A stretch of 64,000 nucleotides of DNA, taken from positions 1 through 64,000 of the forward strand of contig JAHQWK010000022.1 of NCBI GenBank assembly GCA_029856145.1. The letters run 5' to 3'. Below the pieces are notes generated by a model, which made no database searches, was not told the origin of the DNA, and saw nothing but the letters and a program-made list of their open reading frames with translations. Shown in pieces: positions 20,669 to 38,018 of the stretch. Source of the DNA: Promethearchaeia archaeon (GTDB lineage Archaea > Asgardarchaeota > Lokiarchaeia > Sigyniarchaeales > SOKP01). How positions within the stretch are numbered: position 1 is the first letter of the stretch; every line of letters starts with the position of its first letter. A program made the position numbers and the translations under genes.

Positions 20669-21400
20669 ATGTATGTGATTGATAAAGATAAACTAAGAAA
20701 ATTCCAAGAACTTATAGATTATGAGTTTAGAGACGAAGAACTATTAATTCAAGCTCTAACTACTCCACAATTAGGTAATCTAACAGGAAAGCCTAGTTAC
20801 GATCTTTTAGAAACATTAGGAGACGCCGTAATTAAAATTATATTTATTTTAAAACTGTATCACTTTGGTATAGAAAGCTCAGGCGAAATTACAAAAATAA
20901 AGGCAAGTTTGGAAAGTGATAAAGCTCTCAAAAAGGTCGCAAATAAGATGAAATTGGAAGATTTTATATTTAAAACAGAAAAGCAAAGAATAGTAGGTAC
21001 TCGCATTCTCGCTGATGTTTTTGAAGCAATATGTGGAGCTTTATTTCTTGATTCAGATTATAGCCTAAGGATGGTTGAACAAAAAATTATTGAACCATTT
21101 TATGAAGATTTAGACATTATAGCTCAAAATTCAATTATTTCTAGTAAAAATGAATTATTAGAATTTTTACAACATAAATTTAAAACTTCTATTAATATTG
21201 AACTTGAGTATGAAAAAAGTGGAATCGAGCATGATCTGATCTGGATAGCTAAGAATCCAAAGATTTTGGATAAGTTTACCCAAAATGAATTAATAGATAT
21301 CCCGATAAAATTAAAATCAGGTAAATTTAGAACAAAAAAAGATGCTGAAAAGAGTTTGTTCAATATTATTTTAGATTATTTGAAAAAAAAAGAAATCTAA
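20669..21400 (+). CDS. rnc: Ribonuclease III
   Basis: The 243-residue protein has the two-domain architecture of class 1 RNase III. In the nuclease domain the signature region YDLLETLGDAV gives acidic residues Asp45, Glu48 and Asp52. Glu73 sits where a fourth ligand occurs, and ADVFEAICGALFLD gives Asp116 and Glu119, so the metal centre looks complete. The C-terminal part (about 156-240, SSKNELLEFLQHKFK to GKFRTKKDAEKSLFNIIL) has the helix-strand-helix pattern of a double-stranded RNA-binding domain. The enzyme would cut double-stranded RNA as a homodimer. Most archaea lack RNase III, so its presence is notable. Confidence 0.9.
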   Translation: MYVIDKDKLRKFQELIDYEFRDEELLIQALTTPQLGNLTGKPSYDLLETLGDAVIKIIFILKLYHFGIESSGEITKIKASLESDKALKKVANKMKLEDFIFKTEKQRIVGTRILADVFEAICGALFLDSDYSLRMVEQKIIEPFYEDLDIIAQNSIISSKNELLEFLQHKFKTSINIELEYEKSGIEHDLIWIAKNPKILDKFTQNELIDIPIKLKSGKFRTKKDAEKSLFNIILDYLKKKEI

Positions 21401-21501: not shown

Positions 21502-21726
21502 ATGGAAAATAAACAATTTGTTGGTTATATTTTCATTTTAGTCGCAATTGGGTGTTTCGTGGCTTCTCTGGTACTATCATTCTTTACATATCGGTTTTTG
21601 ACTCTTCAAATAGTATTCCCATCTAATTTGCCAACCATAATTTCTAGGTCAATATTATTCATTGGTTTAATACTGGCTTTTATTATTATGTGTGTGGGGC
21701 TTTTTCTCATAATAAAATTTCGCTAA
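21502..21726 (+). CDS. Small membrane protein, two spans
   Basis: The 74-residue protein has two hydrophobic segments (about 7-29 and 46-70) joined by a short polar turn, with both ends probably cytoplasmic. It belongs to no family I recognise. It lies between RNase III and the large ABC cluster, 245 bp before the ATPase gene, so membership in that cluster is not indicated. Confidence 0.6.
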   Translation: MENKQFVGYIFILVAIGCFVASLVLSFFTYRFLTLQIVFPSNLPTIISRSILFIGLILAFIIMCVGLFLIIKFR

Positions 21727-21971: not shown

Positions 21972-23150
21972 ATGCCTAAATCACCAGTAATAGAAAAAAC
22001 ACCTTTAATGAAGCAATTTGAAGAAGAAACAGGAAAATTAGCAATTTGGAAGGGTGAGATTTCTAAGAATTTTAAAAAGTGGAAAAAAAAGAAACAGCAA
22101 GAAGAAGTAAAAAAAATAAAAGAAGACATGCTCTCCCAATCTCGTATTGAAAAGAAGAAAATGAAAAAGGATGTAAAGGAAGATAAAGTCGGTGGAAAAG
22201 ATTATGATCATTTAATTATGGTGGAAAATCTCCATAAAACATACCTATTAGGTACGACAGCAGTTGCAGCATTAAGGGGTGTTGATTTAACAATAGATAA
22301 TGGAGATTTTATTGATATCATGGGTCCTTCTGGTTCTGGAAAAACGACACTTCTCAATTTAATTGGTGGCCTTGATACCCCAACAAGGGGGAAAATCTTC
22401 TTAGAAGGAACCAATATTTCCATGCTGAACGATAATTCCTTGGCGGAGATAAGACGTGAAAAAATTGGATTCGTTTTTCAATTCTATAACCTTCTCCCTC
22501 AGATGACTGCAATGGAGAATGTCATGGTACCTTTACATTTTTCTGGGAAATTAAGTCGTCGAGGTAAAAGAAAAAAAGCGATGGATCTCTTGAGATTAGT
22601 AGGATTAGATGAAAGGGCACATCATACGCCTTCTGAATTGAGTGGAGGTGAACAGCAAAGGGTTGCTATCGCAAGGGCTTTTGCGAATGACCCCGCTATT
22701 TGCGTTCTTGATGAACCAACAGGTGATTTGGATTCTAAAACGGGGGTTATGGTTTTGAATCTTCTTAGAGATTTAAATAAACGTGGTGCAACTTTTATTG
22801 CTGTGAGTCATGATGCCACTGTGTCAGAATTTGCATCTAGAGTTTTTCACATGAGAGATGGAAAACTTACTCATGAAGGAAAAATTAGCGGTTTGAAAGA
22901 AACTGAGATTATGCAGCTTAAAAGAAGGCAAGAAACAGAAATTAATAAAGAAAAATGTAAGAATAAAATTTTCCAATATCTTTATTCTAACCAGGGTAAA
23001 GTAGAAATTCCAATAAGCGATATTAAAAGTAGTATTCCAAATTCTATAATTATGAATTTACCGGAACACTTTAATGATATACTTCAGGAATTAATTGAAG
23101 AAAACAATATTTTTGGTCGAATTGAAGGAGATTTATTAATTTTAAATTAA
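21972..23150 (+). CDS. ABC transporter ATPase, LolD/MacB type, with N- and C-terminal extensions
   Basis: The 392-residue protein has an ATPase core from about 80 to 310. Walker A is GPSGSGKTT (118-126), the Q-loop is in FVFQFYNLLPQ, the signature is LSGGEQQR (223-230), Walker B is VCVLDEPT-like (CVLDEPT, 244-250) and the H-loop is SHD (279-281). It matches the LolD/MacB/FtsE clade (LPQMTAMENVMVPL). Unusually, about 75 highly charged coiled-coil residues precede the core. The last 65 residues look like a winged-helix module (YLYSNQGKVEIPISDIKSSI). It is the first gene of a co-directional cluster and must power the two permeases downstream. Confidence 0.93.
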   Translation: MPKSPVIEKTPLMKQFEEETGKLAIWKGEISKNFKKWKKKKQQEEVKKIKEDMLSQSRIEKKKMKKDVKEDKVGGKDYDHLIMVENLHKTYLLGTTAVAALRGVDLTIDNGDFIDIMGPSGSGKTTLLNLIGGLDTPTRGKIFLEGTNISMLNDNSLAEIRREKIGFVFQFYNLLPQMTAMENVMVPLHFSGKLSRRGKRKKAMDLLRLVGLDERAHHTPSELSGGEQQRVAIARAFANDPAICVLDEPTGDLDSKTGVMVLNLLRDLNKRGATFIAVSHDATVSEFASRVFHMRDGKLTHEGKISGLKETEIMQLKRRQETEINKEKCKNKIFQYLYSNQGKVEIPISDIKSSIPNSIIMNLPEHFNDILQELIEENNIFGRIEGDLLILN

Positions 23151-23194
23151 AATTCTTTATGAGTTAAATTAAAATCTAAATTACTTTAAGCCAT

Positions 23195-26176
23195 ATGACA
23201 CACATTAAGCTAGTCTTTAAATATGCGTTTCAAGATTTAAAAAAAAAAAAAATTAGAACGTTTTTAGCTATATTTGGAATGCTTATATCTATAGGACTTC
23301 TTACGGTAGTCTTATTTTTATCAGATTCTATTGCTGTGGGTTATGTAAACTATTTATCTATAGATTCTGGAAATCAGGATGCCGTTATCTCCGTAAGACA
23401 TTATGATGGAGAACCTAGTAACAGATCTTCTTATTTTGATTATAATCCAATAATTAACACAGTTCAAGATACATCTGATGCGATAGATAATTTTATTCCA
23501 AGAATGGAAATAAGGGGATATGTTAAGAATCTTTTAACGGATGAGCAGGAATGGGCTACCATCTCAGGAATTAATTTTACTTTAGAGAATAGTATTAATT
23601 TTGGGTCATTTATAAATCCCGATTATGATGAATTATTGGATTTAGATGAATTGCCTTTAGATTATTGTGCCATTTATTATGGATTTAATGATATCATTAA
23701 ATATTCTGAAAATGATACTATCGAAATTGAAATGCGATTAACTCATGGAGATATTACATTATATCGTACAAAGAATCTTACAATAGCTAAAATTTTTGAT
23801 TTTAGATTAAAATGGCCAGCAAGTTATCGTGATAGGAACCTAATTGTAGTTGACATTGAGACAATCTATCAATATTTTGGTTTTGAGGAATTTCAAGGAA
23901 AATGTGATGATTTAATATTAACATTCAAAGATAGTAGTAGTCTTTATGATATTAGAGATTTTGAAAGTTCTAAAATTTTAGTGAAGAATCTCGTCACAGA
24001 TATACAATTAGCAATAGGTATTAATGAGTATAATATAGATTTACCTAAATTGCGCATATTAGGGTCTGCTGAGATGCTAGGCGTATTTATAGTAATAATC
24101 TTCGTTTTTGTGTCAATTGTGGCTATGATGATTTCTGGGGTTCTTATTAATGGGATTTTAAAAACTTCTGTAGAAGAGAGGATTCGAGAATTCGGGATTT
24201 TCAGAACGTTGGGTGCGAATAAGAGATATAATTTAGCTATAGTATTAATGCAAGGCTTTTTATTATGTAATTTGGGGGCTATTTCAGGGATTGTAACAGC
24301 ATTTGTACTTTCTTATTATGTAATTATTCCTTTTGCAAATATTGTTGTTTCACAGAGTATGTTGGGTTTTGCTACAATACCCTTCTCTTTTACGTGGTGG
24401 TCTGTCATTATCTCATATATCATGGGTATTAGTGTAGGAATGATAGTCAGTATTGCTCCAGCTTATAAAGTGATGCGTCTTCAATTAATTGAATCGATTC
24501 ACCCTTATCGCCATGAAGATACATTATATCGTATACAAAAAAAAGCTACAGTCAATTATAAATTAATTCTAACTGGAATAATATTAGCATTTAATGGTGG
24601 TTTTGTCTTTTATGTGATTCCAAGAATTATGGTTTCAAGTGATATGACTCTATTTGCAGGTACATTGATAGCAATTTTATTAATATTTAATATTGGTTTA
24701 ACTCTTGCTGGATTAGGGTTGATCCCCATTATATTAAGGTTGGTAATTGAGTCATTTAGACCACTTGCTAGAAAATTACACAATGTGATAAAGATTTTTG
24801 TTTTTAGATATCAGCGTAGAAATTCAAGTACTATTATCATATTTGCATTGTCTTTCTCATTTGTTATTTTCACTTCCTCTCTTATTAATACATTATCCGC
24901 ACAATCAACTGCTATGACAAAACTAGCATATGGATCAGATCTACTTATTGAAACTACCGGATGGGAAGAACCTGAAGATTCAGGTGGTGGAGGTATTTTT
25001 GGTTCGGTGATTTCTAATGAAAATTTTGGAAATAGTCTCTTAGAATATGAAAAATTACAGACGGCTGATGCTTCTATAAATCCTAATAGAATTCTCACAA
25101 TTGAATTTGAAGAAGATTTAATGACTATAGACGGCATTGAGAAAGTTAGCTCTGTTTTAGCAAAGCCTTATCAATTAACTCAAATTTATGCTGAAGAAAA
25201 TAAAGAATTCAACGCTGAAATTGGAGATTATGCGGGATTATCCACACAAGATATAACATTAATTGGAATTGATGAAGAATATCCTTTCACAGTGAAAAGG
25301 GAGTATATTGAAATGACCTCCGGAAGTATAGACAATTCTTTTAATGAGCTATTTTATAATGTTCAAATCCGCACCTGCATTATTTCTGAAGCAATTGCTT
25401 TAATGATGAATTTATTGGTTGGTGATAATGTACGTATTGTTATTCATAGAGGAGATGAAAGGGAAGTATATCCATTTCTAATTGTTGGATCTGCTAAAAG
25501 CATGCCGGGATTTCCTCAAGAATTTTCGGGATCTAGTATGGGGGCAGAAAGAGGAGGTGTGTTAATCTCTCAAGAAACATACATTGAAATTATGGATATC
25601 CCTCCAATTCCTTATTTGGATTGTATATTTATTAAACTCCGAGAAGATAAGTTATCAGAATCTCATATAATTGAGGAATTGATAGATGAAGCTTACCAGA
25701 CGGAATATAATTATGATATAACCAATCTAGCTAGAAGTGTAGCACAACAAGAATCTGCTTTCCTTGTATTAGATATATTATTTACTCTTATTACTCTTAC
25801 TACTGTATTTATAAGTATTTTTGGATTACTCTCTTCATCATATTCGACTATAATTGAGAGAAAAAAAGAGATTGGCATAATAAGAACATTAGGTCTAAAA
25901 GGGAGAGAAATAAATAGATTATTTATACTGGAATCCTTAATAATTATGATTAGTAGTGGAACCATTGGCATTGCAGTAGGTTGGCTTACAAGTTGGCTGG
26001 TTACAAGCCAGTTAATGGGTACTTTAGCAGGAATGCCAACCGTGTTATTTGTACCTTGGTCTAATATACTCTTAGTTTATGCTCTATCTGTTGTAATGAT
26101 ATTTTTTGGAATGAAAGTGTTATTAAGAAAAGCTAGAAAGCAGAAGATAGTTGAAATTTATAGGGAGACAATTTAA
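23195..26176 (+). CDS. FtsX/MacB-type ABC permease 1 (duplicated, about 10 spans)
   Basis: The 993-residue membrane protein starts with a membrane helix (FLAIFGMLISIGLLTVVLFL, about 23-45). A 240-residue outside domain follows, then an FtsX core of three helices (about 297-430) with VEERIREFGIFRTLGANKR. Two extra helices lie near 455-510, then a second first-helix module, another outside domain of about 290 residues, and a second FtsX core ending in IIERKKEIGIIRTLGLKGRE and YRETI. This duplicated layout resembles LolC/LolE-like and lipoprotein- or peptide-handling type VII ABC permeases, which act mechanically on outside substrates. It lies 44 bp after the ATPase gene. Confidence 0.92.
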   Translation: MTHIKLVFKYAFQDLKKKKIRTFLAIFGMLISIGLLTVVLFLSDSIAVGYVNYLSIDSGNQDAVISVRHYDGEPSNRSSYFDYNPIINTVQDTSDAIDNFIPRMEIRGYVKNLLTDEQEWATISGINFTLENSINFGSFINPDYDELLDLDELPLDYCAIYYGFNDIIKYSENDTIEIEMRLTHGDITLYRTKNLTIAKIFDFRLKWPASYRDRNLIVVDIETIYQYFGFEEFQGKCDDLILTFKDSSSLYDIRDFESSKILVKNLVTDIQLAIGINEYNIDLPKLRILGSAEMLGVFIVIIFVFVSIVAMMISGVLINGILKTSVEERIREFGIFRTLGANKRYNLAIVLMQGFLLCNLGAISGIVTAFVLSYYVIIPFANIVVSQSMLGFATIPFSFTWWSVIISYIMGISVGMIVSIAPAYKVMRLQLIESIHPYRHEDTLYRIQKKATVNYKLILTGIILAFNGGFVFYVIPRIMVSSDMTLFAGTLIAILLIFNIGLTLAGLGLIPIILRLVIESFRPLARKLHNVIKIFVFRYQRRNSSTIIIFALSFSFVIFTSSLINTLSAQSTAMTKLAYGSDLLIETTGWEEPEDSGGGGIFGSVISNENFGNSLLEYEKLQTADASINPNRILTIEFEEDLMTIDGIEKVSSVLAKPYQLTQIYAEENKEFNAEIGDYAGLSTQDITLIGIDEEYPFTVKREYIEMTSGSIDNSFNELFYNVQIRTCIISEAIALMMNLLVGDNVRIVIHRGDEREVYPFLIVGSAKSMPGFPQEFSGSSMGAERGGVLISQETYIEIMDIPPIPYLDCIFIKLREDKLSESHIIEELIDEAYQTEYNYDITNLARSVAQQESAFLVLDILFTLITLTTVFISIFGLLSSSYSTIIERKKEIGIIRTLGLKGREINRLFILESLIIMISSGTIGIAVGWLTSWLVTSQLMGTLAGMPTVLFVPWSNILLVYALSVVMIFFGMKVLLRKARKQKIVEIYRETI

Positions 26177-26183
26177 GGGAGGT
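26177..26183 (+). promoter_or_regulatory. Shine-Dalgarno GGGAGGT before a TTG start
   Basis: GGGAGGT directly follows the permease stop codon and ends seven bases before TTG 26191. It justifies the TTG start, because the following residues form a signal peptide. It also indicates co-transcription with the permease gene. Confidence 0.75.
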
Positions 26184-26190
26184 AAAAATA

Positions 26191-29100
26191 TTGAAAAAAA
26201 ATAAATTGATAATAATATGTGTTTTACTTTTCATGGTTTTTCTTACGCCCTTAAACTTTGTTTTAGAAAACAGCATTAGAAGTATAGATGTAAAAGAAGA
26301 GAATGTAATTGGATCAATTGATTATAATTTAAAAATTTCTGATGTTGCAGGCTCAGATCTTTATGCTGAAAAGATTAATGTATATGTTGCCGGGAATAAA
26401 TCAATAATAAAGCATTCACTCTTTACCAATGATACAAATATTCTTTCTCAATTTGATTCAAAAGATCCAGCTTTCCATAAATGTAATTTGATAATAAGTG
26501 CTTCAAATGGAATCAATCCTGAGATATTTCCACAAATTTTGACTGAGAATGAAATCCCTTCCCAGTATCTTGTAGGTTTTAATAATTTTGTTGGATTTCT
26601 TTTTTATGATGATATTTTGAATACTGAAGATGCTGAAATGAGAGCAGAGAGAGCTTTAGAGATAATTAGAAAAAAATTCAAGATTGATCTTATAATGATT
26701 AATGTGTCAGAACCTAATTTTTTTCCTTTTATTGGATCTTGCCCAAATTGGGAATGTGTTTTTAATGAACTTACGACTAATTTTCCAATGGATGGATATT
26801 GGAAAGCATTGAATATAGATCGCTTAACTACCCAAGAATATACACAAAATTACCATATCTCCTCATCCTTTATGTTACTTAATTCATTAGACTTTTTTGA
26901 AGGAGACTATGATATATCAACAGATCAAGTAAACTTCAATTTAGAATCTCTGGATTTATCTTTCTTAGAAAATTTAGAATTACAGAATCTTGTTGATCAA
27001 TTCGATGCTATATTAGAAAATTATGGAGATATATTTAATGCTACAATTTCTGAAGATGAATTAGAACTATTTATTGAAATCTTTAGCTCATTTACACTTT
27101 CAAACAATTCACACTATACAAGTATTTCAATTCAATATGAAGGATTGGATGAGGGAATACAAAAAGTTGGGAAAAATCAATATGAATTCAATTTATGGGA
27201 TGCATTAGGGTATGATGGGGATCCATTATCTCCAAGTGAAAAAATTTATATAGCATTAACAGGTGCTTTCATGAGTGAAATCGAAATAAATATTTTATGC
27301 ACAGAAATCACTGATGCAACTCCAAAGAATTTTAAATTTAGTGATTACCTTTTAGAACAGATAGGGTTACTTTTTTATCTTGCTGGGATTGATTTTAACA
27401 CTCAAGATCTTAAAGATTATTCATTTGATTTATTTTGGGTTGATAATGATGGAATTAAACGTTCTTATATTAAACCAGTTAATCTACAGGACCCGTCTGA
27501 TATTGTCAATTTTATGCAGCAATTTGGATTTCAAGGTTTTTCTTTTATTCCAACTGGAATTGTAAATCCAATTGAAGATTTTTCAGTAACTTATAATATT
27601 TCTAATTCTGAACCTAATTTATTGCTTAAAAAAGAATTGATTGGAGAAAATGCATCGTATGGGGCATTTCAAAATTTTTCATACTATATATCAACAGAAA
27701 ATGTAGGTAATGTTACTGCGTGGGGCGTACCTACTCCAATTCCCCTTGAACTTAATGATTTTTTCCTTCTTCTTACATTAGGAAATCAACCACTGGCAGA
27801 TCAATTTCAAGATGCTATATGGGAAATAGTTCGTATAGAATACCCAAATCAATATGATTCTTTAGAAGATTTTTTTAATTTTGATGAAGATCCAAGGATT
27901 TTTTATTTTGATTCATTTGGTACGGGAGTTTTCGATTCTTTTTATCCAGATTTACTTAATTTTACAAATTTAACACCTTATAATAAAGATATGGACCATG
28001 TTATCAATATTATTGCTAGTCCTGGAGGGTATCCTCAGTTAATTGCAGCTTTAGCAGCTTTAGGGATTACTACAACTGAACTTAAAGATTATTTTACAAA
28101 TAATTATAGTATATGGAATGATAATAATTGGAAATTAAGCCCAGGAGAAATCTTGTCTTATAAAATTAATAATTATTCAATTACTAATTTAGATTCCTTT
28201 ACTCCTTTTTATATTGATAATTTTACAATTCAATCAATACCAACTACCCCTGAAATTATTTCAGGTACACCTCTCAGTGGAACTACCCCCGAAATGGCTT
28301 TATCTACCGATGATGAGAGTTGGATAATTGGTTCTGTGGAAAAATTCTTAGAACAAAGAGTTGAAATAGATTTTATTTTTAGAAATGATACAAATATCGA
28401 TTTTGCTAATAATACACTAGAGAGAGTCTCTTTTATATTAAGTATCAATGCTTCTATTAACTTAGAAGCATTCAACTTTGAAATTTTTGATTTTAATGTT
28501 GAAGAATTTAAAGATATGACTCCTTATTTAGACAATAATATAAATAATACTTGGAAGTTCTCGATAATTAATCAAAATAAAAATTTAGATTGGCTTTTTT
28601 ATCCATTAGATCAACAAAACTATACTGTAATTTTTAAAATAAATAGTAGAAACTCAGAGCCGTTTAATATCTCAATCAATAATTTAGATATTGAGTTTTC
28701 TGTAAGGGACATCAATTTTAATGATGATTCAGGTTCTAGAGTAGTATATGGTTCTTCATCAGGTAATGTTCAATTTGAAAGATTCTCCAATTCGATACCC
28801 TTATGTACTTATGATGGAGCATCAATTATAGTTAATTCATATTTAAATAATTACAGCTCTAAACCGGGTGAATTAAATACATATCTCATAAATTTTAAGA
28901 ATATTGGTTCCAAAATTGCTAAGAATATAACTATTTCTCTGCTAATTCCGGGTATTATTGATACAATTAACAATTTCACCCTTACAGATAGCAATTTATC
29001 ATATTATTTAGCTGAACTAGCTCCTTCAGAAGAGAAAACAATAAACTTTTCATTTTATACTCCCAATTCAATATCTTTAAGTGAAATTTCAATAATCTAT

Positions 29101-30171
29101 TACAATATAAAAAACATTGAGGGTGGAAATTCTTCTAAAATAGTTAGTTTTACAAATGAAGTTTTTATTTCAGCACCTATAAACTATGAAGATAGCTTCC
29201 CATTTATTAGGACTATTGAAATTAGCTACAATAATTTTGAATCAGAATTGATTAATAATGCTCCTGCTATAGGAGAATCTTTTAATCTTACTGTAAACAT
29301 TAAAAATGTTGGCCCAGAAGGTTTTAGAATACCAGATCTTAACATATCAATGAATGATCAATTTGGTGATTTAAAGAGAGCAGATCATTATACACCATAT
29401 TTTGAAGATATTGCCTTTAACGATTCAATCTCGTTTAACATTACTTTAAAAAAAGTCGGATGGAAAGGATATTATTATCCTCCTATTAATTTTATTGAGA
29501 GTTCAGAAAGTAGAACACTACAGATATCTGCTTCACCATTTAAGATATTAGGGAAAATTAATTTTACAATCATTAAATCTGTAAGTAAAAAACAAATCGA
29601 GATTGGAGATAAAACAATCGTAAGTATAGAAGTGGAAAATACAGGAACAATTAGTATTGAAGATATAAAAGTTAATGATATGATTAGCTTTTCTCAATTA
29701 GATTTCTCTCTAATAGAAGGAAATTTAATTATTTTGATAGATTCCTTAGATCCAGGCGAAAAAGTTGCTTTCAATTATACAATTAAAGGTAAAAGACAAA
29801 CCCTTGTAAGTTTAAAACCAGCAAGTATTGAATTTTACTATTTATATGAAAATGAAGCAATTTCAAATATAGTTACTATAAAAATTATAACTCCAAAATC
29901 AAGACAATTTTTTTATATAGCTTTGCCAATATTAATAGGTCTTGTGATCTTGAGTACTTATTTCTGGCAAATTAAAAAATATAAAAAAAAGAGAAAGGCT
30001 TATGAAAGATCTGAAATGCATATTTTTGAACTTAGCTCAAGGGAATCAATACTCAAGATAGATCATACTTTAAGAGAAAAGTTAAATATCATTTTAAAAC
30101 AATCTAAAGACCAAATCATCAATTCGGATAGAAATGAAGAAATTAATAAAATAATAAAAGACAATGAATAG
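26191..30171 (+). CDS. Giant secreted membrane-anchored protein with Ig/CARDB-like repeats
   Basis: The 1326-residue protein starts at TTG, supported by a Shine-Dalgarno sequence. Residues 1-25 are a signal peptide (KKNKLIIICVLLFMVFLTPL). The bulk is outside the cell and has a great many N-x-S/T sequons, pointing to N-glycosylation. The C-terminal third has CARDB/DUF11-like beta-sandwich repeats, for example NTYLINFKNIGSKIAKNITI and VSIEVENTGTISIEDIKV. A single C-terminal anchor (about 1238-1260) is followed by a basic cytosolic tail of about 65 residues. No catalytic motif was found. Its position between two ABC permease genes suggests a substrate, receptor or periplasmic-adaptor-like part of that machine. 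Confidence 0.85.
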   Translation: MKKNKLIIICVLLFMVFLTPLNFVLENSIRSIDVKEENVIGSIDYNLKISDVAGSDLYAEKINVYVAGNKSIIKHSLFTNDTNILSQFDSKDPAFHKCNLIISASNGINPEIFPQILTENEIPSQYLVGFNNFVGFLFYDDILNTEDAEMRAERALEIIRKKFKIDLIMINVSEPNFFPFIGSCPNWECVFNELTTNFPMDGYWKALNIDRLTTQEYTQNYHISSSFMLLNSLDFFEGDYDISTDQVNFNLESLDLSFLENLELQNLVDQFDAILENYGDIFNATISEDELELFIEIFSSFTLSNNSHYTSISIQYEGLDEGIQKVGKNQYEFNLWDALGYDGDPLSPSEKIYIALTGAFMSEIEINILCTEITDATPKNFKFSDYLLEQIGLLFYLAGIDFNTQDLKDYSFDLFWVDNDGIKRSYIKPVNLQDPSDIVNFMQQFGFQGFSFIPTGIVNPIEDFSVTYNISNSEPNLLLKKELIGENASYGAFQNFSYYISTENVGNVTAWGVPTPIPLELNDFFLLLTLGNQPLADQFQDAIWEIVRIEYPNQYDSLEDFFNFDEDPRIFYFDSFGTGVFDSFYPDLLNFTNLTPYNKDMDHVINIIASPGGYPQLIAALAALGITTTELKDYFTNNYSIWNDNNWKLSPGEILSYKINNYSITNLDSFTPFYIDNFTIQSIPTTPEIISGTPLSGTTPEMALSTDDESWIIGSVEKFLEQRVEIDFIFRNDTNIDFANNTLERVSFILSINASINLEAFNFEIFDFNVEEFKDMTPYLDNNINNTWKFSIINQNKNLDWLFYPLDQQNYTVIFKINSRNSEPFNISINNLDIEFSVRDINFNDDSGSRVVYGSSSGNVQFERFSNSIPLCTYDGASIIVNSYLNNYSSKPGELNTYLINFKNIGSKIAKNITISLLIPGIIDTINNFTLTDSNLSYYLAELAPSEEKTINFSFYTPNSISLSEISIIYYNIKNIEGGNSSKIVSFTNEVFISAPINYEDSFPFIRTIEISYNNFESELINNAPAIGESFNLTVNIKNVGPEGFRIPDLNISMNDQFGDLKRADHYTPYFEDIAFNDSISFNITLKKVGWKGYYYPPINFIESSESRTLQISASPFKILGKINFTIIKSVSKKQIEIGDKTIVSIEVENTGTISIEDIKVNDMISFSQLDFSLIEGNLIILIDSLDPGEKVAFNYTIKGKRQTLVSLKPASIEFYYLYENEAISNIVTIKIITPKSRQFFYIALPILIGLVILSTYFWQIKKYKKKRKAYERSEMHIFELSSRESILKIDHTLREKLNIILKQSKDQIINSDRNEEINKIIKDNE

Positions 30172-30183
30172 AGGGATTTTTAA

Positions 30184-33100
30184 ATGAAAAAAAAACAGAT
30201 ACAATCCATTATTCTATTGATTATTTTAATAATTTCATATACTAGTGTGTTTCATAGCTTCTCCAATTCATCCGATTACTCTACTGAAATCTCAGACACA
30301 CCACAAAACAAAATTAATCCTTTAGTTTCAGGTTTTTATAATAAAAATATTATTGTTTCCTTTAAGAAACAATCATATAATAGTTCTGTTACTTCTCGTT
30401 TTGAATATTACGGAGGAACTATTAAAGAAGAATGGAACAATAAATTCACTTCAATTTCAGGATTTGCTGGTATAATGCCTTTAGAATCGAACAAAACTGC
30501 TTTTCAAAGTGATTTTCCAGATGCTATAATTGAAAATGACGAAATTTTAGAAGCTCAGATGAACTATGCCTCAATTCAGTCTGGTGCTGTTAACTCAACT
30601 TGGTATCTGAATGGGTTAAAAGGAGCTACAGACTCTTCTGTAGCAGTATTAGATACAGGTATCAATCCTAATCATAACTTCTTTCCAGAGGGGTATAGTC
30701 CATCGGATTTAAGTGGAGATATTGTAGGTTGGCAAAACTTTGTGGACACACAACCGATATCCGATGATAATGGACATGGCACTTTAATAGCTTCAATCAT
30801 TTCTGGAACTGCTACAGATTCATATGATTCGAATATTCCTTCATTAATCAAAATCAAAGGTAACTATTCTCACACTGAATTATTTGAAGAATTCTCTACT
30901 CCAGGAAATTATTCGCTAAAAATATTCTCTTTTAATGCCTCAAAAGCGAGTTCAGATATTTTAATTAATTCTTCATGGAAATTGGAAACGCAAGGAATAG
31001 ATAAATTTTGGTTTGAACTATATTATAATGATACGTTAGTTCAATATTCATATAATGAAATTCCTGATCTTTATTACATTATTAACCAAGCTCTCAATCA
31101 AGATAACTTAGGTGTTTATGATTTATATTTGAAATATCATAAATTGCTCCAAAGTAGACCCATTTTTTCTTTCAATAGTATAGTATCTTATTTCCCAGAA
31201 TTTCCAATTGAAAATAGAAATCACTTCACAGGTATTGCGAATGCTACAAAAATAGTTGCCTATAAAATTTTAAATCAATCGGGCAAGGGATATACTTCGG
31301 ATTTAATATCAGCACTCGCAAGTGTAATCGAAAATAGAGAGATTGACCATATCATTAGTGTTTGTTTAAGCATTGGCACTTTAGGAGAAGATGTGACAAC
31401 TGTAAATTCTGTAATAGATGATGTAGTGGAAAGTGGAATACTCGTCGTAATTGCAGCAGGAAATTCTGGTATAGAAGTTTCTGTTTCGTTAAATAAATTA
31501 GCAGAAAATAAAAATGCAATAGTAGTAGGTGCAATAAATGATAAAGATCAAGTTACTTCCTATAGTAGTATGGGAAAGAATATTGAAAATATTATTAAAC
31601 CGGACATTGTTGCTCCTGGTGGTAGTAAAATATCAGGTCATCGTTCAATAATCGGTGCTAGTGATGAGATCGATAAAGCTGCTCCCTCTTATGGAACTTC
31701 AATTGCCACTGCAATTGTATCAGCAGCAGTTAACATATTAATAGAAGCAAGATGGAATACATGGAATCAATGGAATAATCTTGATTTAACAATGTGGGTC
31801 AAATATATTAAAGCAATTTTATTAATGACAGCTTCAGAAACTAATGTTGAAAGAGAGGATGATCCCTCTACATTGAGCGATGAAAGAGAACAATCACCAT
31901 CTTTATCTGTTGCTCCAATGACAACTGGTTTAAAAGATATTCATGAAGGATATGGAAGATTAAATCTTCAGGCTGCTGTTGATGCTTTAATTAAAAATGT
32001 AGAAGAGAATAGTTTAGTGAATGGTCATTTAATAAGTTCTCAAGAAGATCCTCTCGGTACACATGTATTTGCTCGCCAAATTGAATTAAATGAAGATATT
32101 CAATATTCATTTACTTTATCAACAGATGACACAGATGCTGATTTCGATTTATTTTTATTTTCAAATGAATCTAATCAATATGGTGAACCAATTCTTCTAC
32201 AATCATCTAGAAAATGGTATGGTGATTTTGATAATTTCTATTTTACTCCAAAAGATAATCAGACTAACTGTGTTATAATTATTAAAGCAATTGAGGGAAG
32301 TAGCGATTTTACTTTGAATATTTCAACTGTTAATAATCTTTTTAAACCAGAATTAGAAGTAGTTGAAATTAATTATATTGGTGGTTCCAAAAATACAACG
32401 GTTATGAGTCTTCAGGAATATATGGGAGGTGAACCGAAGAAAAATTATACAATTGATAGTTATAGGTTTTATATTGAATATTTCGATAATGATACGTCAA
32501 ATGTCCCACCTCAAGAGGTTTATGTCTCCATTCTAGAATTATCAAAAAATTATACATTAACTCAACTTTATGCACCAGATAATACTTACACTGATGGGGC
32601 AATATTCGTAAGTGACTATATTCAATTTCCGAGATCTGGAATATTTCATTATTTTTTTGTGGCTAGTGACGGTGCTTTTAAAACAAGATATCCAAACACT
32701 AAACAACTTAATATTACAATTGAATTCCCAACAGATAGTATCCAATTCCCAAATTACCATAATTTTAATGATGGAATTGGTAATTGGACATATACTGGTA
32801 CTGGTTGGGAGATAATGTCTCAAAATAATTATTATGATAATAGATCAAGAATATATCAAGATTATTGGTACTCCATGTATTTTGGCACATATCATAATAA
32901 TCCAAAAAATTACTCTTATCAACCTATTAGAATAACTGAGGATCCATATCCAAATGGTTCTTTAATCAGTCCTTTATTCAATTTAACAAATATAGAGCAA
33001 AACCAAAGTCAACCTTATGCAAAATTTGGATTTAGAGTAAGCATCAATACAGGAGATTTTGTTTATTTACAAATTAATCTAAATTGGACCGGTTGGATAA

Positions 33101-35010
33101 CTCTAAAAACTTATACTGATATAGAGCAGGACTGGTTTATGGAAGAAATTAATTTAACCCAATATATTGGAAATTTTGTTCAATTTCGATTCGATACTTC
33201 TCTAGACGATGATTTTGATTCGATAAATTATAAGGGATTTATTTTAGATTATTTTGCGATCATAAATTATACTAATGAAAATTCCCCTGTGATATATTTT
33301 AATTTAAATAATGATATTTCCTCAACCCAAGATTCGAAATACCAGAAATATAGGTTTTCTTTTGAATATTTTGATTTAGATAATAACTATCCTGAATTCG
33401 TCTACTTAGAAATGGATGGTACTAATTATACAATGTACAATATTTATGGTGATTGGAATGCTAGCTCAAATGGCATTGAAGATTGGGGGATTTATTTTAC
33501 CAGATCTATACTATTAGAAGAAACCTCAAACCAATCATTCAGATATCATGTTTCAGATGGTCTACATATAAATTCAAGCCCGTGGTATAATAAAAACAAT
33601 TCACTCTTTAAGTTTATCAACCCAACTCCTTTACAATTCAATGTTTTTAAAGATAATAAGTTCATTGGGTATGAATATTCAAATACAAACTTAGTTGATT
33701 ACTATGTATCAGGAACTCCCCTCCCAAAAGAAGATACTGCTTGGTTTAGAGCAGACAATACATGGCATCCTATAAGCCGTCTTAACCAACCTTATATATA
33801 TGGAGGAATAGGACAAGGTTATGGTGGTTTTGAGCAGGGTTATGGAATAAATTGGGATAGTAATTTAATTACTCGCCCATTACACCTTGGAAGTGAATAT
33901 AAAGTGTATTTTGAATTTGATTATGAAATATCCTTACAAAATGAATACTATCAACCCGAAGATCAGTTAGATAAGTGCATAATTTCAATATCAAAAGATT
34001 TTGGTGAAACATGGATTATCCTTAAAGAATTTACATATGATAATGAGGACCTCTCTGGAAGTAAAAGATTTGATATTTCTCACTATTCTGGAGAAGATAT
34101 AATGATAATGTTCACTTTACATTCAAACAATAATATAATTGGATTGGGATATGGATGGTTACTCTCTAATATTTATCTGGGTTATGATAAATCAACAGAT
34201 TTTATAGCTCCAGAAATAAAAATATTAAGTCCCGAGCCTAACATAAGTATAAATTCAATAATTGCGATTGAAGTAAATATAACTGATAATATTGGATTGG
34301 ATGAGTTAAGAATTTACATACTTCTGAATAATAATAGTGTTGATAGAAGTAAACTTACATATAATAGTAATACAAGTATATTAGAATTTAATTGGAATAC
34401 CGCTAATTTTAATGATGGAACATATGAAATTAGAATAGTGGCTTTTGATAAAGAAGGAAATAAAGCAGAGTCATTCATATATGTTACAGTAAATAATGGG
34501 AGATGGTGGCTTCTATGGGGGCCATATATAATTTTGATAGGGACCATAGCTGCTGTAATGATATCATTATTTGTTATTGCTGAGAAGAAGGGAAAAATTT
34601 GGATTCAGAATATTAAAAATATTCGTGCTGAAAAAATTAGACTTAAAGATATTGATAAAGATCAAGTAATAAAACGAATAGAATTAATCGAACACGAAGA
34701 AGAACTTAAAAAACCTTTAACTTTATATTGTAAATCATGTAGATCCTGGTTTATATCTAACAAATTTGATATAATCTGTCCTATATGTGAGCATGATCAA
34801 ATCTATACTGCATATAACTGCTCAAATTGTGGAAAGTGGTCTTTGAAAGACGAACCAAGAGAAAATTATTATTGTAAAAATAAAAGATGTGAAGGAGTTA
34901 GGTTAGTTAGAAAGGAAAAAGAAGAAATTGAAGAAATTTTGGCTGAGGAAGGTAAATTTCCAAGAGAGTTTAAGAGTAAAAAAAAGAAATTTAGCATTTT
35001 AGATGTGTAA
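30184..35010 (+). CDS. Transmembrane subtilisin-like (S8) protease with cytosolic zinc ribbons
   Basis: The 1608-residue protein has a signal peptide (about 1-27) and an I9-like propeptide (about 50-128). The S8 catalytic residues are Asp157 (AVLDTGINP), His198 (NGHGTLIAS), oxyanion Asn427 (AAGNSG) and Ser506 (GTSIATA), so it should be active. An insert of about 140 residues separates His198 from the next core strand. Residues 600-1435 are outside beta-rich repeats with jelly-roll-like segments and many glycosylation sequons. A membrane helix (about 1440-1465) is followed by a cytosolic tail with two zinc ribbons (CKSC, CPIC, CSNC and CKNKRC). It begins 12 bp after the previous gene and is probably co-translated. 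Confidence 0.92.
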   Translation: MKKKQIQSIILLIILIISYTSVFHSFSNSSDYSTEISDTPQNKINPLVSGFYNKNIIVSFKKQSYNSSVTSRFEYYGGTIKEEWNNKFTSISGFAGIMPLESNKTAFQSDFPDAIIENDEILEAQMNYASIQSGAVNSTWYLNGLKGATDSSVAVLDTGINPNHNFFPEGYSPSDLSGDIVGWQNFVDTQPISDDNGHGTLIASIISGTATDSYDSNIPSLIKIKGNYSHTELFEEFSTPGNYSLKIFSFNASKASSDILINSSWKLETQGIDKFWFELYYNDTLVQYSYNEIPDLYYIINQALNQDNLGVYDLYLKYHKLLQSRPIFSFNSIVSYFPEFPIENRNHFTGIANATKIVAYKILNQSGKGYTSDLISALASVIENREIDHIISVCLSIGTLGEDVTTVNSVIDDVVESGILVVIAAGNSGIEVSVSLNKLAENKNAIVVGAINDKDQVTSYSSMGKNIENIIKPDIVAPGGSKISGHRSIIGASDEIDKAAPSYGTSIATAIVSAAVNILIEARWNTWNQWNNLDLTMWVKYIKAILLMTASETNVEREDDPSTLSDEREQSPSLSVAPMTTGLKDIHEGYGRLNLQAAVDALIKNVEENSLVNGHLISSQEDPLGTHVFARQIELNEDIQYSFTLSTDDTDADFDLFLFSNESNQYGEPILLQSSRKWYGDFDNFYFTPKDNQTNCVIIIKAIEGSSDFTLNISTVNNLFKPELEVVEINYIGGSKNTTVMSLQEYMGGEPKKNYTIDSYRFYIEYFDNDTSNVPPQEVYVSILELSKNYTLTQLYAPDNTYTDGAIFVSDYIQFPRSGIFHYFFVASDGAFKTRYPNTKQLNITIEFPTDSIQFPNYHNFNDGIGNWTYTGTGWEIMSQNNYYDNRSRIYQDYWYSMYFGTYHNNPKNYSYQPIRITEDPYPNGSLISPLFNLTNIEQNQSQPYAKFGFRVSINTGDFVYLQINLNWTGWITLKTYTDIEQDWFMEEINLTQYIGNFVQFRFDTSLDDDFDSINYKGFILDYFAIINYTNENSPVIYFNLNNDISSTQDSKYQKYRFSFEYFDLDNNYPEFVYLEMDGTNYTMYNIYGDWNASSNGIEDWGIYFTRSILLEETSNQSFRYHVSDGLHINSSPWYNKNNSLFKFINPTPLQFNVFKDNKFIGYEYSNTNLVDYYVSGTPLPKEDTAWFRADNTWHPISRLNQPYIYGGIGQGYGGFEQGYGINWDSNLITRPLHLGSEYKVYFEFDYEISLQNEYYQPEDQLDKCIISISKDFGETWIILKEFTYDNEDLSGSKRFDISHYSGEDIMIMFTLHSNNNIIGLGYGWLLSNIYLGYDKSTDFIAPEIKILSPEPNISINSIIAIEVNITDNIGLDELRIYILLNNNSVDRSKLTYNSNTSILEFNWNTANFNDGTYEIRIVAFDKEGNKAESFIYVTVNNGRWWLLWGPYIILIGTIAAVMISLFVIAEKKGKIWIQNIKNIRAEKIRLKDIDKDQVIKRIELIEHEEELKKPLTLYCKSCRSWFISNKFDIICPICEHDQIYTAYNCSNCGKWSLKDEPRENYYCKNKRCEGVRLVRKEKEEIEEILAEEGKFPREFKSKKKKFSILDV

Positions 35011-35024
35011 AAAATAATTAAAAG

Positions 35025-38018
35025 GTGATGATAATAGATTTAAGAAATTTCTTGTATAAACTAAGAAGACGTATAAATCTACAAATTATCAAACATTCCT
35101 TGCTCGATCTCAAACGGGATAAAGCGAAAGCGATTTTTGGAATATGTGGTATCGCAGTTTCATTATTTTTATTAACAACTATTGGAATGTTAAATGATAC
35201 AGTGAATTATAATTATCTTTTATACGTTACATCATCAACAGGAAAATCAGATATTATGATTACACGAACAATACAAACAGATTTAACCTATGATCCTTTC
35301 TATGATGAAGATATTATTGATAATGAATTAATGGATATTGAGGGGGTTCAAAAGTTATTTCCGCGTATTATGATGTTAGTAGAGACCTCTTCAGAAAATA
35401 TTAACACGAGTGGTTCTTTACAATTATATGGTCTTGACTTTATAGAAGAAGCTACAAATGGTAATATAGGAGATTTAATAATAGTAGATGATGAAGGAAA
35501 AGAAACAAATGAGATCTATGATGATGAGCCTAATAATGGGGAATGTATTATATTATGGAACGTTGCACAACTCCTTAACGTAAGTAGAGGAGATAGTATA
35601 AATTTAAAATACCAAACTTATGAATTAAACTTAACTGTAGCTGAAATTTGTATTCAAGCCCTTAAATTCATGCAATTTGAAAATACATTAATCCTTGTTA
35701 ATTTACAACAAGTCCAAAGTTTCCTAAAACGAGAAGGTTTAATAAATTTTATTGTAGGGACTATTAATGATCCTAGATCTGTTTATGATGCTAGTAATTT
35801 GGACTTAACAACTAGAAGGCTTCGAAAAATTGGTTCTAATATACAGGAAAGGTTGGATCTTAATGAATTCACTGTAAGCCTACCAAAATTAGAGGAACTT
35901 GAAGGAGGTGAATTTCTATTAATGACAGTGACAATAATGTTTTGGTTCATCACAATTCTCTCCACTCTTATAACGGGCATTTTAATAAACAGTATTTTAT
36001 CTACTTCAGTTGAAGAAAGAATTAGAGAATTTGGTGTTGTTCGTGTTGTTGGAAGTAGAAAAGCTTATTGTATAAAAATGGTTCTATTTGAAGGGTTGAT
36101 GTTAGGCTTAATTGGATCGATTATTGGAATGATACTTGGATTCACAATGATGAAACCAATTGCACAATCTTTTTTTCCTCTATATGAGTTTCAATTTGCG
36201 TTTACTGAAGTAGAATGGGTTATTCAACCTGATACGCTTATAATGACATTTTCAATAGGAACATTAGTATCATTAGCAGTATCCTTATTACCTGCTCTAA
36301 AAACAGCGAAGTTAGATATTATTAAATCAATTACTCCCTTTCAAACGAAGGAAGAAGGATGGGAAATTAAAAAAGAGGGTAGTATGAATGTTAAAAGTTT
36401 TCTTGCGGGTATTGCGATAGCTACCATTGGAATGATTGTATTTGTCTTGATGCCAAATATTTTTGTTACAGGTGATTTTATGTTAACTTCAGCACTTTTT
36501 ATTGGCTTATTAGCTGCAATTGTAATCGGATTGGTCTTTGCATCCATAGGAATAATCCCTTTAATTCAAAAAATCTTTTTAGGCATAATTTCACCAGCTA
36601 TTAGAAAATATAGTAGTATCATAAATATTTCGATAAAACGATATAGAAGACGTAATACAAGCACTGTGATTATGTTTGCAATTAGTTTTTCTTTTATTTT
36701 CTTTATTACAAGTGTAACTGAAATGGAATCTGAAAATATGAGCCTAAATTTAAGATTTCAATATGGTTCAGATTTAGTTTTAATGAATCAAAATTTCCAT
36801 TCCCCCGAAAGTGCTTTAACACTTGAAATGGTTGAAGAATTAGAAAGCTTGCCGGGAGTAGATGAATTAGCCATTTCTCTCCATAATACATTTGACCTTC
36901 AAGCAACTCTAGCAACAATTTTTGAAATAAGTGAAGGTCAAGTGGGTTTTAGTAGTGATTCCACTGAACAAATGATGACTATGTTTCAATATTTTGGAGA
37001 GGCAGACGATTCAAAATTGAAAACAACAGCGGGAGACATGATGGATTTTGATGTTGTGGAAGCAGGATTTATAGGCATAAATGAAGATTTTGTTGATTTA
37101 ATTGATAAAGCCTTATTAATTTGGAAAAGTGATGGTAGTAACACTGATTATTCCTTTAATGAATTATTCACTCATAATAATACGTGTATTATAGCTAAAT
37201 CCATAGCAGATTATATAGGAGTTAAAGAAGTAGGGGAATATGTTCGTATGACATTTTATAGGCCAGAAGATTATGACAATGGACCATTGGCTCCTGGGAA
37301 TGTCACACTATTTCGGGTTGTTGGAATTTCAGGTGGGATTCCTGGATTTTATAACTTTCGAAGTAATGAAATGTCTGCTAATGGGGGAGGTGTAATGGTT
37401 TCCTTAGAGAATTACATGCGTTTGATGAAAGTCGAAAACTCTGGAGAACCTAACATGATAGTAGATAAAATATTTTTAAACCTAGTTGATAAGACTGAAG
37501 AAAACATCAAAGAGACTAAAGACGATATTAACAATATGTACCAAGAAAAGGATATAATTATTGATGATGCCATTTCTAAAATTAACTTTTTTGAAGCGAT
37601 GACTGAAAGACAATCCTTTCTGATGGAACTGATTTTGACGTTCACCGTAATTATTAGCATTTTTGGTCTTGTAAGTAGTATGTATGCAGTTATATTAGAG
37701 CGAAAATTTGAAATTGGGATACTTAGATCAATGGGGATGAAAACACGGAATGTACGTAATATGTTTTTAATTGAAAGTATGATTACTCTACTTTCTGCGG
37801 GTGTTATGGGCACAATTATTGGGACTTTCACTGCATTTATATTAGAATCTACAATGGCACTTATGACCGAGATGCCAATAATATTTACTATTCCGATGGA
37901 AACCTTATCAAGAGTGTTTATTTTATCAATCTCTTTTGCGTTTTTAGGAACATATGTGATTTTGATCAAATATTTTTATAAAAAGAGTATAATGGATATA
38001 TTTCGTCAAACCTTTTAA
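35025..38018 (+). CDS. FtsX/MacB-type ABC permease 2 (duplicated, about 10 spans)
   Basis: The 997-residue protein has the same layout as the permease at 23195: a first helix, a 220-residue outside domain, and an FtsX core with VEERIREFGVVRVVGSRKA. Extra helices come next, then a second half with ILERKFEIGILRSMGMKTRN, ending in MDIFRQTF. Sequence identity between the two permeases is limited in the outside domains but clear in the cytosolic coupling loops, so they probably form a heterodimer on one ATPase, as LolC and LolE do on LolD. The start may be GTG 35025 or ATG 35028. It is 14 bp after the protease stop. Confidence 0.92.
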   Translation: MMIIDLRNFLYKLRRRINLQIIKHSLLDLKRDKAKAIFGICGIAVSLFLLTTIGMLNDTVNYNYLLYVTSSTGKSDIMITRTIQTDLTYDPFYDEDIIDNELMDIEGVQKLFPRIMMLVETSSENINTSGSLQLYGLDFIEEATNGNIGDLIIVDDEGKETNEIYDDEPNNGECIILWNVAQLLNVSRGDSINLKYQTYELNLTVAEICIQALKFMQFENTLILVNLQQVQSFLKREGLINFIVGTINDPRSVYDASNLDLTTRRLRKIGSNIQERLDLNEFTVSLPKLEELEGGEFLLMTVTIMFWFITILSTLITGILINSILSTSVEERIREFGVVRVVGSRKAYCIKMVLFEGLMLGLIGSIIGMILGFTMMKPIAQSFFPLYEFQFAFTEVEWVIQPDTLIMTFSIGTLVSLAVSLLPALKTAKLDIIKSITPFQTKEEGWEIKKEGSMNVKSFLAGIAIATIGMIVFVLMPNIFVTGDFMLTSALFIGLLAAIVIGLVFASIGIIPLIQKIFLGIISPAIRKYSSIINISIKRYRRRNTSTVIMFAISFSFIFFITSVTEMESENMSLNLRFQYGSDLVLMNQNFHSPESALTLEMVEELESLPGVDELAISLHNTFDLQATLATIFEISEGQVGFSSDSTEQMMTMFQYFGEADDSKLKTTAGDMMDFDVVEAGFIGINEDFVDLIDKALLIWKSDGSNTDYSFNELFTHNNTCIIAKSIADYIGVKEVGEYVRMTFYRPEDYDNGPLAPGNVTLFRVVGISGGIPGFYNFRSNEMSANGGGVMVSLENYMRLMKVENSGEPNMIVDKIFLNLVDKTEENIKETKDDINNMYQEKDIIIDDAISKINFFEAMTERQSFLMELILTFTVIISIFGLVSSMYAVILERKFEIGILRSMGMKTRNVRNMFLIESMITLLSAGVMGTIIGTFTAFILESTMALMTEMPIIFTIPMETLSRVFILSISFAFLGTYVILIKYFYKKSIMDIFRQTF

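What the first reader, a model, noticed from the sequence alone, without database searches (positions are those of the whole stretch)
21972..38018. Five-gene envelope machine: one ABC ATPase, two FtsX-type permeases, a giant surface protein and a transmembrane subtilase
Seen: five adjacent genes on one strand with gaps of 12-44 bp. The two permeases share the duplicated FtsX layout, and between them sit a 1326-residue anchored glycoprotein-like protein and a 1608-residue S8 protease with intact Asp157, His198 and Ser506. Known: type VII ABC systems (LolCDE, MacB, FtsEX, BceAB) use mechanical transmission to act on outside lipoproteins, peptides or hydrolases; FtsEX activates hydrolases. Inference: the heterodimeric permease may gate or activate the protease, or release or mature surface proteins, giving an archaeal system analogous to LolCDE or FtsEX combined with a sheddase.
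Basis: partly seen in the sequence, partly recalled or inferred. Interest (0 to 1): 0.75.

Follow-up and report, generated by a model that had tools for sequence, protein, structure and literature searches.

The report
Asgard surface-protein ABC machine, optional protease
Lokiarchaeia-type archaea (relatives of the eukaryote ancestor) carry a conserved gene set for an ATP-driven membrane machine built from two sister transporters that share one motor, with a large surface protein and a protease partner that some lineages have inactivated or lost, so protein cutting cannot be its core job.

Summary
ATPase, permease, 1326-aa anchored exoprotein (EXO), 1608-aa membrane-anchored subtilase and permease lie on one strand with gaps of 12-44 bp. 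The same order occurs in 22 other genomes of the order Promethearchaeales, between different neighbours in different families. (1) Each permease is a complete 10-helix YbbP-type pseudodimer with two coupling helices; the predicted PERM2 fold matches E. coli YbbP end to end. A LolCE-like obligate heterodimer is therefore unlikely. PERM1 and PERM2 are sister clades whose outside Asgard relatives are mostly simple ATPase+permease pairs. (2) The core is ATPase-PERM1-EXO-PERM2. The subtilase is accessory: absent in the Sigynarchaeum family, cleanly missing in one same-family genome (G023), and catalytically dead (D157G, H198L/Q, N427D, propeptide lost) in three genomes. The dead domain is still under purifying selection and keeps all eight cysteines of a cytosolic double zinc ribbon. 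Best reading: a type VII ABC machine that mechanically works on a lineage-specific surface protein, onto which a protease was recruited, kept in one clade only as a scaffold. Substrate and contacts are untested. Novelty: new variant of a known kind.

The parts
21972..23150 (+). LolD/MacB/FtsE-type ABC ATPase, 392 aa, with an N-terminal extension and a C-terminal domain after the nucleotide-binding domain
   Evidence: ABC_tran 1.5e-35; LolD model 8.5e-71 but below its cut-off; Walker A, signature and Walker B motifs conserved in aligned homologues
22944..23147 (+). C-terminal domain of the ATPase (residues about 325-392), winged-helix-like at best
   Evidence: weak F-93_WHD match, E=0.056, sub-threshold; aligned across f1-f3
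23195..26176 (+). PERM1: YbbP-type duplicated FtsX permease, 10 TM, two extracytoplasmic domains
   Evidence: two FtsX stretches; 10 TM and two coupling helices; sister clade of PERM2
24158..24229 (+). PERM1 coupling helix 1 (residues 322-345)
   Evidence: EERIREFGxxRxLG-like motif conserved in f1-f4
25838..25909 (+). PERM1 coupling helix 2 (residues 882-905)
   Evidence: ERxxEIGIxRTLG-like motif conserved
26191..30171 (+). EXO: type I membrane exoprotein, 1326 aa, 32 NxS/T sequons, constant partner of the cassette
   Evidence: full-length homologues only in this order; N-terminal hydrophobic segment 1-29 and C-terminal TM 1237-1261
26278..28830 (+). EXO residues 30-880, region of unknown fold
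   Evidence: AF2 pLDDT 80, pTM 0.70; no Foldseek PDB match below E=1e-3
29575..29850 (+). TRAP-beta/DUF11-like Ig domain next to the membrane in EXO
   Evidence: PF05753 in 24 of 24 homologues, best 4.6e-19; the only PF05753 match in this genome at E<=1e-3
30184..35010 (+). PROT: membrane-anchored S8 subtilase, 1608 aa, accessory part
   Evidence: Peptidase_S8 2.6e-39; present in f1-f3, absent in f4 and G023
30331..30555 (+). propeptide-like segment of the protease (residues about 50-124), lost in the dead copies
30562..31983 (+). S8 catalytic region (residues about 127-600) with D157, H198, N427, S506
34504..34590 (+). protease C-terminal TM (residues 1441-1469)
   Evidence: hydropathy
34729..34890 (+). 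cytosolic double zinc-ribbon-like tail, 8 Cys (residues 1516-1569)
   Evidence: all 8 Cys present in all 45 homologues that reach it, dead copies included
35025..38018 (+). PERM2: YbbP-type duplicated FtsX permease, 10 TM
   Evidence: AF2 model; Foldseek top hits 9ge6/9ge7 YbbP, E=1.6e-17 and 3.6e-15
35994..36068 (+). PERM2 coupling helix 1 (residues 324-348)
37680..37751 (+). PERM2 coupling helix 2 (residues 886-909)

Best explanation
The cassette encodes a type VII (mechanotransmission) ABC machine of Promethearchaeales. One ATPase homodimer drives two sister YbbP-type permeases, most likely as two separate 2:1 complexes (ATPase2:PERM1 and ATPase2:PERM2). ATP-driven movement of their MacB/LolC-like extracytoplasmic domains acts on the large anchored exoprotein EXO, the constant partner. 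The subtilase is an accessory recruited to this core. It is held in the membrane with its zinc-ribbon tail facing the cytosol. Where its triad is intact it probably processes proteins handled by the machine; in one clade it survives only as a pseudoprotease, so its shared role is binding or scaffolding. Shown by sequence: gene order, permease architecture, duplication history, and absence or inactivation of the protease. Inferred: stoichiometry, contacts, direction of force, and substrate.
For: Conserved cassette. 10 TM plus four conserved coupling helices and a YbbP fold match for PERM2; YbbAP-TesA is 2:1:1 with 10 TM and coupling helices at TM2-3 and TM8-9 (PMC12646458). PERM1 and PERM2 are sister clades; outside Asgard relatives are mostly two-gene ATPase+permease units. 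EXO stays when the protease is absent: L113, L114, L115, L226. Dead protease triad and lost propeptide in L106, L107 and L110, one clade at 100/100, under purifying selection. Zinc cysteines invariant.
Against: No physical contact between any of the products was tested. EXO region 30-880 has no recognisable fold, so what the machine does to it is unknown. Two YbbP-type units could still pair with each other. Nine genomes of the same genus or family that are at least 90% complete lack the cassette, so it is not essential.
Confidence: 0.5

Rival explanations
1. One reading: a heterodimeric permease gates or activates the protease (FtsEX-like) so that it sheds or matures surface proteins, EXO being substrate or adaptor.
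For: Intact triad in 44 of 47 operon proteases read; stable linkage of the protease in f1-f3; extracytoplasmic hydrolase partners or their activators are known for type VII systems (FtsEX-EnvC, YbbAP-TesA; PMC7668044, PMC12646458).
Against: Each permease is a full pseudodimer. The protease is absent in f4 and G023 and catalytically dead in three genomes while both permeases and EXO remain.
Confidence: 0.17
2. A lipid or lipoprotein extractor (YbbAP- or LolCDE-like) that pulls hydrophobic cargo from the outer leaflet and hands it to EXO.
For: Closest fold is YbbP, then MacB and LolC/E; the ATPase is nearest to the LolD model, though below its cut-off.
Against: No lipid-binding or lipoprotein-chaperone fold was recognised in EXO 30-880; lipoprotein biosynthesis genes were not examined.
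Confidence: 0.22
3. Two independent YbbAP-like transporters plus a co-transcribed EXO and protease that are ordinary surface proteins with no physical link.
For: Stand-alone membrane-anchored S8 paralogues exist in the same genome; ATPase+permease pairs without exoprotein exist in other Asgard lineages.
Against: EXO stays between the two permeases in all four families despite changed flanks; genomes at least 90% complete that lack EXO lack the permeases too.
Confidence: 0.11

Closest known systems
YbbAP-TesA (E. coli type VII ABC, PDB 9GE6-9GE8)
   Same: 10-TM duplicated FtsX permease with two extracytoplasmic domains, coupling helices TM2-3 and TM8-9, LolD-like ATPase, an extracytoplasmic hydrolase partner in most lineages
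   Different: Two sister permeases per cassette; the hydrolase is an anchored subtilase, not the esterase TesA, and is dispensable; a 1326-aa anchored exoprotein; ATPase with extra terminal domains
BceAB-BceS
   Same: 10-TM single-chain permease with a membrane-anchored partner protein
   Different: BceB has one large extracytoplasmic domain, the partner is a histidine kinase, and it works in antibiotic sensing (PMC12646458)
LolCDE
   Same: ATPase resemblance to LolD; LolC/E-like half domains
   Different: LolC and LolE are 4-TM half permeases that must pair; here each permease is a fused pair; no LolA-like gene in the cassette
FtsEX-EnvC
   Same: A type VII ABC drives an extracytoplasmic partner; EnvC itself activates amidases rather than cutting, an analogue for the dead protease
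   Different: FtsX is a 4-TM protein acting as a dimer; no subtilase; cell-division context
MacAB
   Same: MacB_PCD-like extracytoplasmic domain in PERM1; mechanotransmission fold
   Different: ATPase and permease are fused in MacB; no MacA-like adaptor here

Membership tests
Type VII (MacB/LolCDE/FtsEX) ABC superfamily | FtsX-type permease core with MacB-like extracytoplasmic domain and LolD/FtsE-like ATPase | tested here: met
   FtsX 1.1e-30 and 7.7e-31; MacB_PCD 3.8e-7 in PERM1; ABC_tran 1.5e-35; Foldseek hits are YbbP, MacB, LolC/E, BceB
YbbAP-like (10-TM duplicated permease) | 10 TM from two FtsX units plus a 2-TM linker, two extracytoplasmic domains, coupling helices at TM2-3 and TM8-9 | tested here: met
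   topology reference PMC12646458
YbbAP-TesA | TesA esterase as the bound partner | tested here: not met
   Only an S8 subtilase is in the cassette, and it is absent in some lineages
YbbAP-like (10-TM duplicated permease) | 2 ATPase : 1 permease stoichiometry | not testable with these tools
   no complex prediction or biochemistry available here
LolCDE | two distinct 4-TM half permeases forming an obligate heterodimer | tested here: not met
   both permeases have 10 TM and two coupling helices
LolCDE | ATPase above the curated LolD cut-off | tested here: not met
   238 bits against a cut-off of 307.75
FtsEX | 4-TM FtsX with FtsE | tested here: not met
   FtsE model 207.8 bits against 264.85; 10-TM permeases
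Peptidase S8 (subtilase) | Asp-His-Ser triad and oxyanion Asn in the S8 fold | tested here: met
   D157, H198, N427, S506 in this window; 44 of 47 operon proteases read; not met in L106, L107, L110
TRAP-beta (PF05753) | small protein of about 180 aa with one Ig-like domain and one TM, in the translocon | tested here: not met
   EXO carries a PF05753 domain above the cut-off but is a 1326-aa protein in an ABC operon

The most novel reading that the evidence does not exclude
A previously undescribed Asgard machine in which duplication of a YbbAP-like transporter and capture of a lineage-specific surface protein produced a paired force generator for a surface protein. A subtilase was later captured and, in one clade, converted into a pseudoprotease that keeps working as a structural or regulatory subunit through its zinc-ribbon tail.
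Probability: 0.35. Interest if true: 0.75.

Novelty: new variant of a known kind. Interest (0 to 1): 0.57.

Why it matters
In the papers I could search I found no description of this system, though the library is incomplete. Type VII ABC machines are defined by their partners, and here nature has run a partner series: two genes, four genes, five genes, pseudoprotease, and protease loss. That series separates the core from the accessory and says which partner to test first (EXO). The organisms are Lokiarchaeia-type Asgard archaea, whose cell-surface biology bears on eukaryote origins, and the exoprotein has a TRAP-beta-like domain that could mislead surveys of Asgard translocon proteins.

Tried and rejected
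Heterodimeric LolCE-like permease: rejected on topology and coupling helices. Protease as the reason for the second permease: rejected, because both permeases persist without it. A loss-of-protease signature in EXO: 18 columns differ, but most differences follow phylogeny and show no clear cleavage site. Small ORF 21502-21726 upstream as a sixth member: no conserved homologue at the fetched loci. PDB fold for EXO 30-880: no match below E=1e-3. Flanking genes as functional partners: in f1 they are an RNase III-domain protein, Ham1 and ribosomal proteins, and they are not shared with f2-f4. Literature searches for an Asgard FtsX/subtilase system found none; two further look-ups failed on their format.

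Full report
OBSERVATION. Upstream lies a 571-bp interval without an ORF of 100 aa or more; downstream a convergent Ham1-family gene ends 28 bp away. In relatives several internal junctions overlap by 1-4 bp, which argues for one transcription unit.

DISTRIBUTION. The exoprotein EXO has strong matches in 58 of 79 genomes of the order searched (my count from the list, E of 2.6e-21 or better). Outside the order only its membrane-proximal Ig domain matches. Named GTDB records are Candidatus Lokiarchaeota MAGs, Prometheoarchaeum sp., Harpocratesius repetitus and Sigynarchaeum springense. The complete five-gene order, same strand, is read in this window and in 22 other genomes (L093-L111, L119, L235, L236). 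In L109 and L110 one gene is split, probably by a frameshift. Flanking genes are shared within family f1 but differ in f2, f3 and f4, so linkage is held at the level of the cassette. Genomes without EXO that are at least 90% complete also lack both permeases, for example G004, G017, G021, G022 and G029, all 98-99% complete. The cassette is therefore present or absent as a unit and is not essential.

PERMEASES. Each has two FtsX stretches, 10 predicted TM segments and two coupling helices, all four conserved across f1-f4. The PERM2 model (pLDDT 73, pTM 0.60) aligns over its full length with E. coli YbbP as the top two PDB hits, E=1.6e-17 and 3.6e-15, ahead of MacB, LolC/E and BceB. TM-scores are modest (0.46-0.59), with 11% identity. 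YbbAP-TesA is 2:1:1 with exactly this topology (PMC12646458). Each permease should therefore bind an ATPase dimer on its own; this is inference from homology. A PERM1 model was not predicted; its topology rests on sequence.

HISTORY. In a tree with other Asgard permeases, PERM1 and PERM2 are sister clades (99 and 98 SH-aLRT, joined at 100), and both include f4 as the first branch. Most outside relatives sit beside a single ATPase with no exoprotein or protease (loci L237-L247; in two the ATPase is divergent and in one the permease is split). The simplest story is an ATPase+permease pair, then permease duplication with capture of EXO before f4 split off, then gain of the subtilase in the ancestor of f1-f3. 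Loss of the subtilase in f4 is the alternative for the last step. The tree used a quick search and some long branches, so the order of early events is provisional.

PROTEASE. This window has D157, H198, N427 and S506. Of 47 operon proteases whose triad could be read, 44 are intact (my count after removing a duplicate row, a stand-alone paralogue and a fragment). Three are not: G040 and G044 (G, L, D, S) and G048 (G, Q, D, S), from three separate genomes, forming one clade at 100/100. The same three lack the propeptide-like segment. In the G040/G044 pair the dead S8 region has pN 0.18 against saturated pS 0.76 and is no less conserved than the rest of the protein. It is maintained as a pseudoprotease and is not decaying. 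G040, 91% complete, shows no other close family member at E<=1e-40. In G023 (f1) EXO and PERM2 are 3 bp apart with no protease between them and none elsewhere at the thresholds used, while the f1 downstream flank is retained. In f4 EXO and PERM2 are likewise adjacent. So proteolysis is not the shared function. What is invariant in every copy that reaches it is the set of eight cysteines of the cytosolic tail (45 of 45).

EXOPROTEIN. It has an N-terminal hydrophobic segment, a C-terminal TM and 32 NxS/T sequons. Residues 30-880 model at pLDDT 80 but match nothing in the PDB below E=1e-3. CARDB and TRAP_beta/DUF11 Ig-like domains follow. Asgard TRAP subunits are known (PMC11417166, PMC10307638), but here the PF05753 domain sits in a 1326-aa ABC partner.

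MECHANISM. Best reading, 0.5: type VII mechanotransmission acting on EXO, with the subtilase as a recruited accessory. Lipid or lipoprotein extraction, 0.22. Unlinked co-transcription, 0.11. No tool here could test contacts, substrate or activity; the experiments listed would decide.

COMPARISON AND VERDICT. By fold the permeases are YbbAP-like type VII; LolCDE and FtsEX membership fails on topology and on curated score cut-offs. The combination of two sister YbbP-type permeases, one ATPase, a lineage-specific exoprotein and a subtilase ranging from active to dead to absent was not found in the searched literature. I rate it a new variant of a known kind.

Noticed in passing
window 29575-29850: The only PF05753 (TRAP-beta) match in this genome lies inside the ABC exoprotein; Pfam-based surveys could score it as a translocon subunit. 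Short 190-219 aa proteins in other Asgard genomes match the same domain.
   Followed up: partly
L124 10469-13366 and L125 9162-11006 (G003): In a one-contig genome the cassette is broken: EXO is truncated after about residue 937, and the protease C-terminal half with PERM2 lies about 1.5 Mb away. Rearrangement or misassembly.
   Followed up: no
L122 1669-10246 (own genome C17): Two divergent stand-alone membrane-anchored S8 proteins; one has a single zinc-ribbon-like cytosolic tail, so this kind of tail is not unique to the cassette.
   Followed up: partly
L123 6453-12292 (own genome C25): Another type VII system: a 1397-aa duplicated FtsX permease followed by two different ATPase genes.
   Followed up: no
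L113 2708-3985, L115 4842-6191, L116 1007-2302: In f4 a conserved protein with a VWA domain (weak Ssl1/Tfb4 similarity) and a RING-like zinc region follows PERM2 on the same strand.
   Followed up: partly
L232 2124-7466 (G022): 1780-aa PQQ/beta-propeller surface protein with a weak match to EXO residues about 659-833, next to a distant ATPase, in a genome that lacks the cassette.
   Followed up: no
window 20669-21400: An RNase III-domain protein (9e-18) upstream of the cassette, conserved in f1.
   Followed up: no
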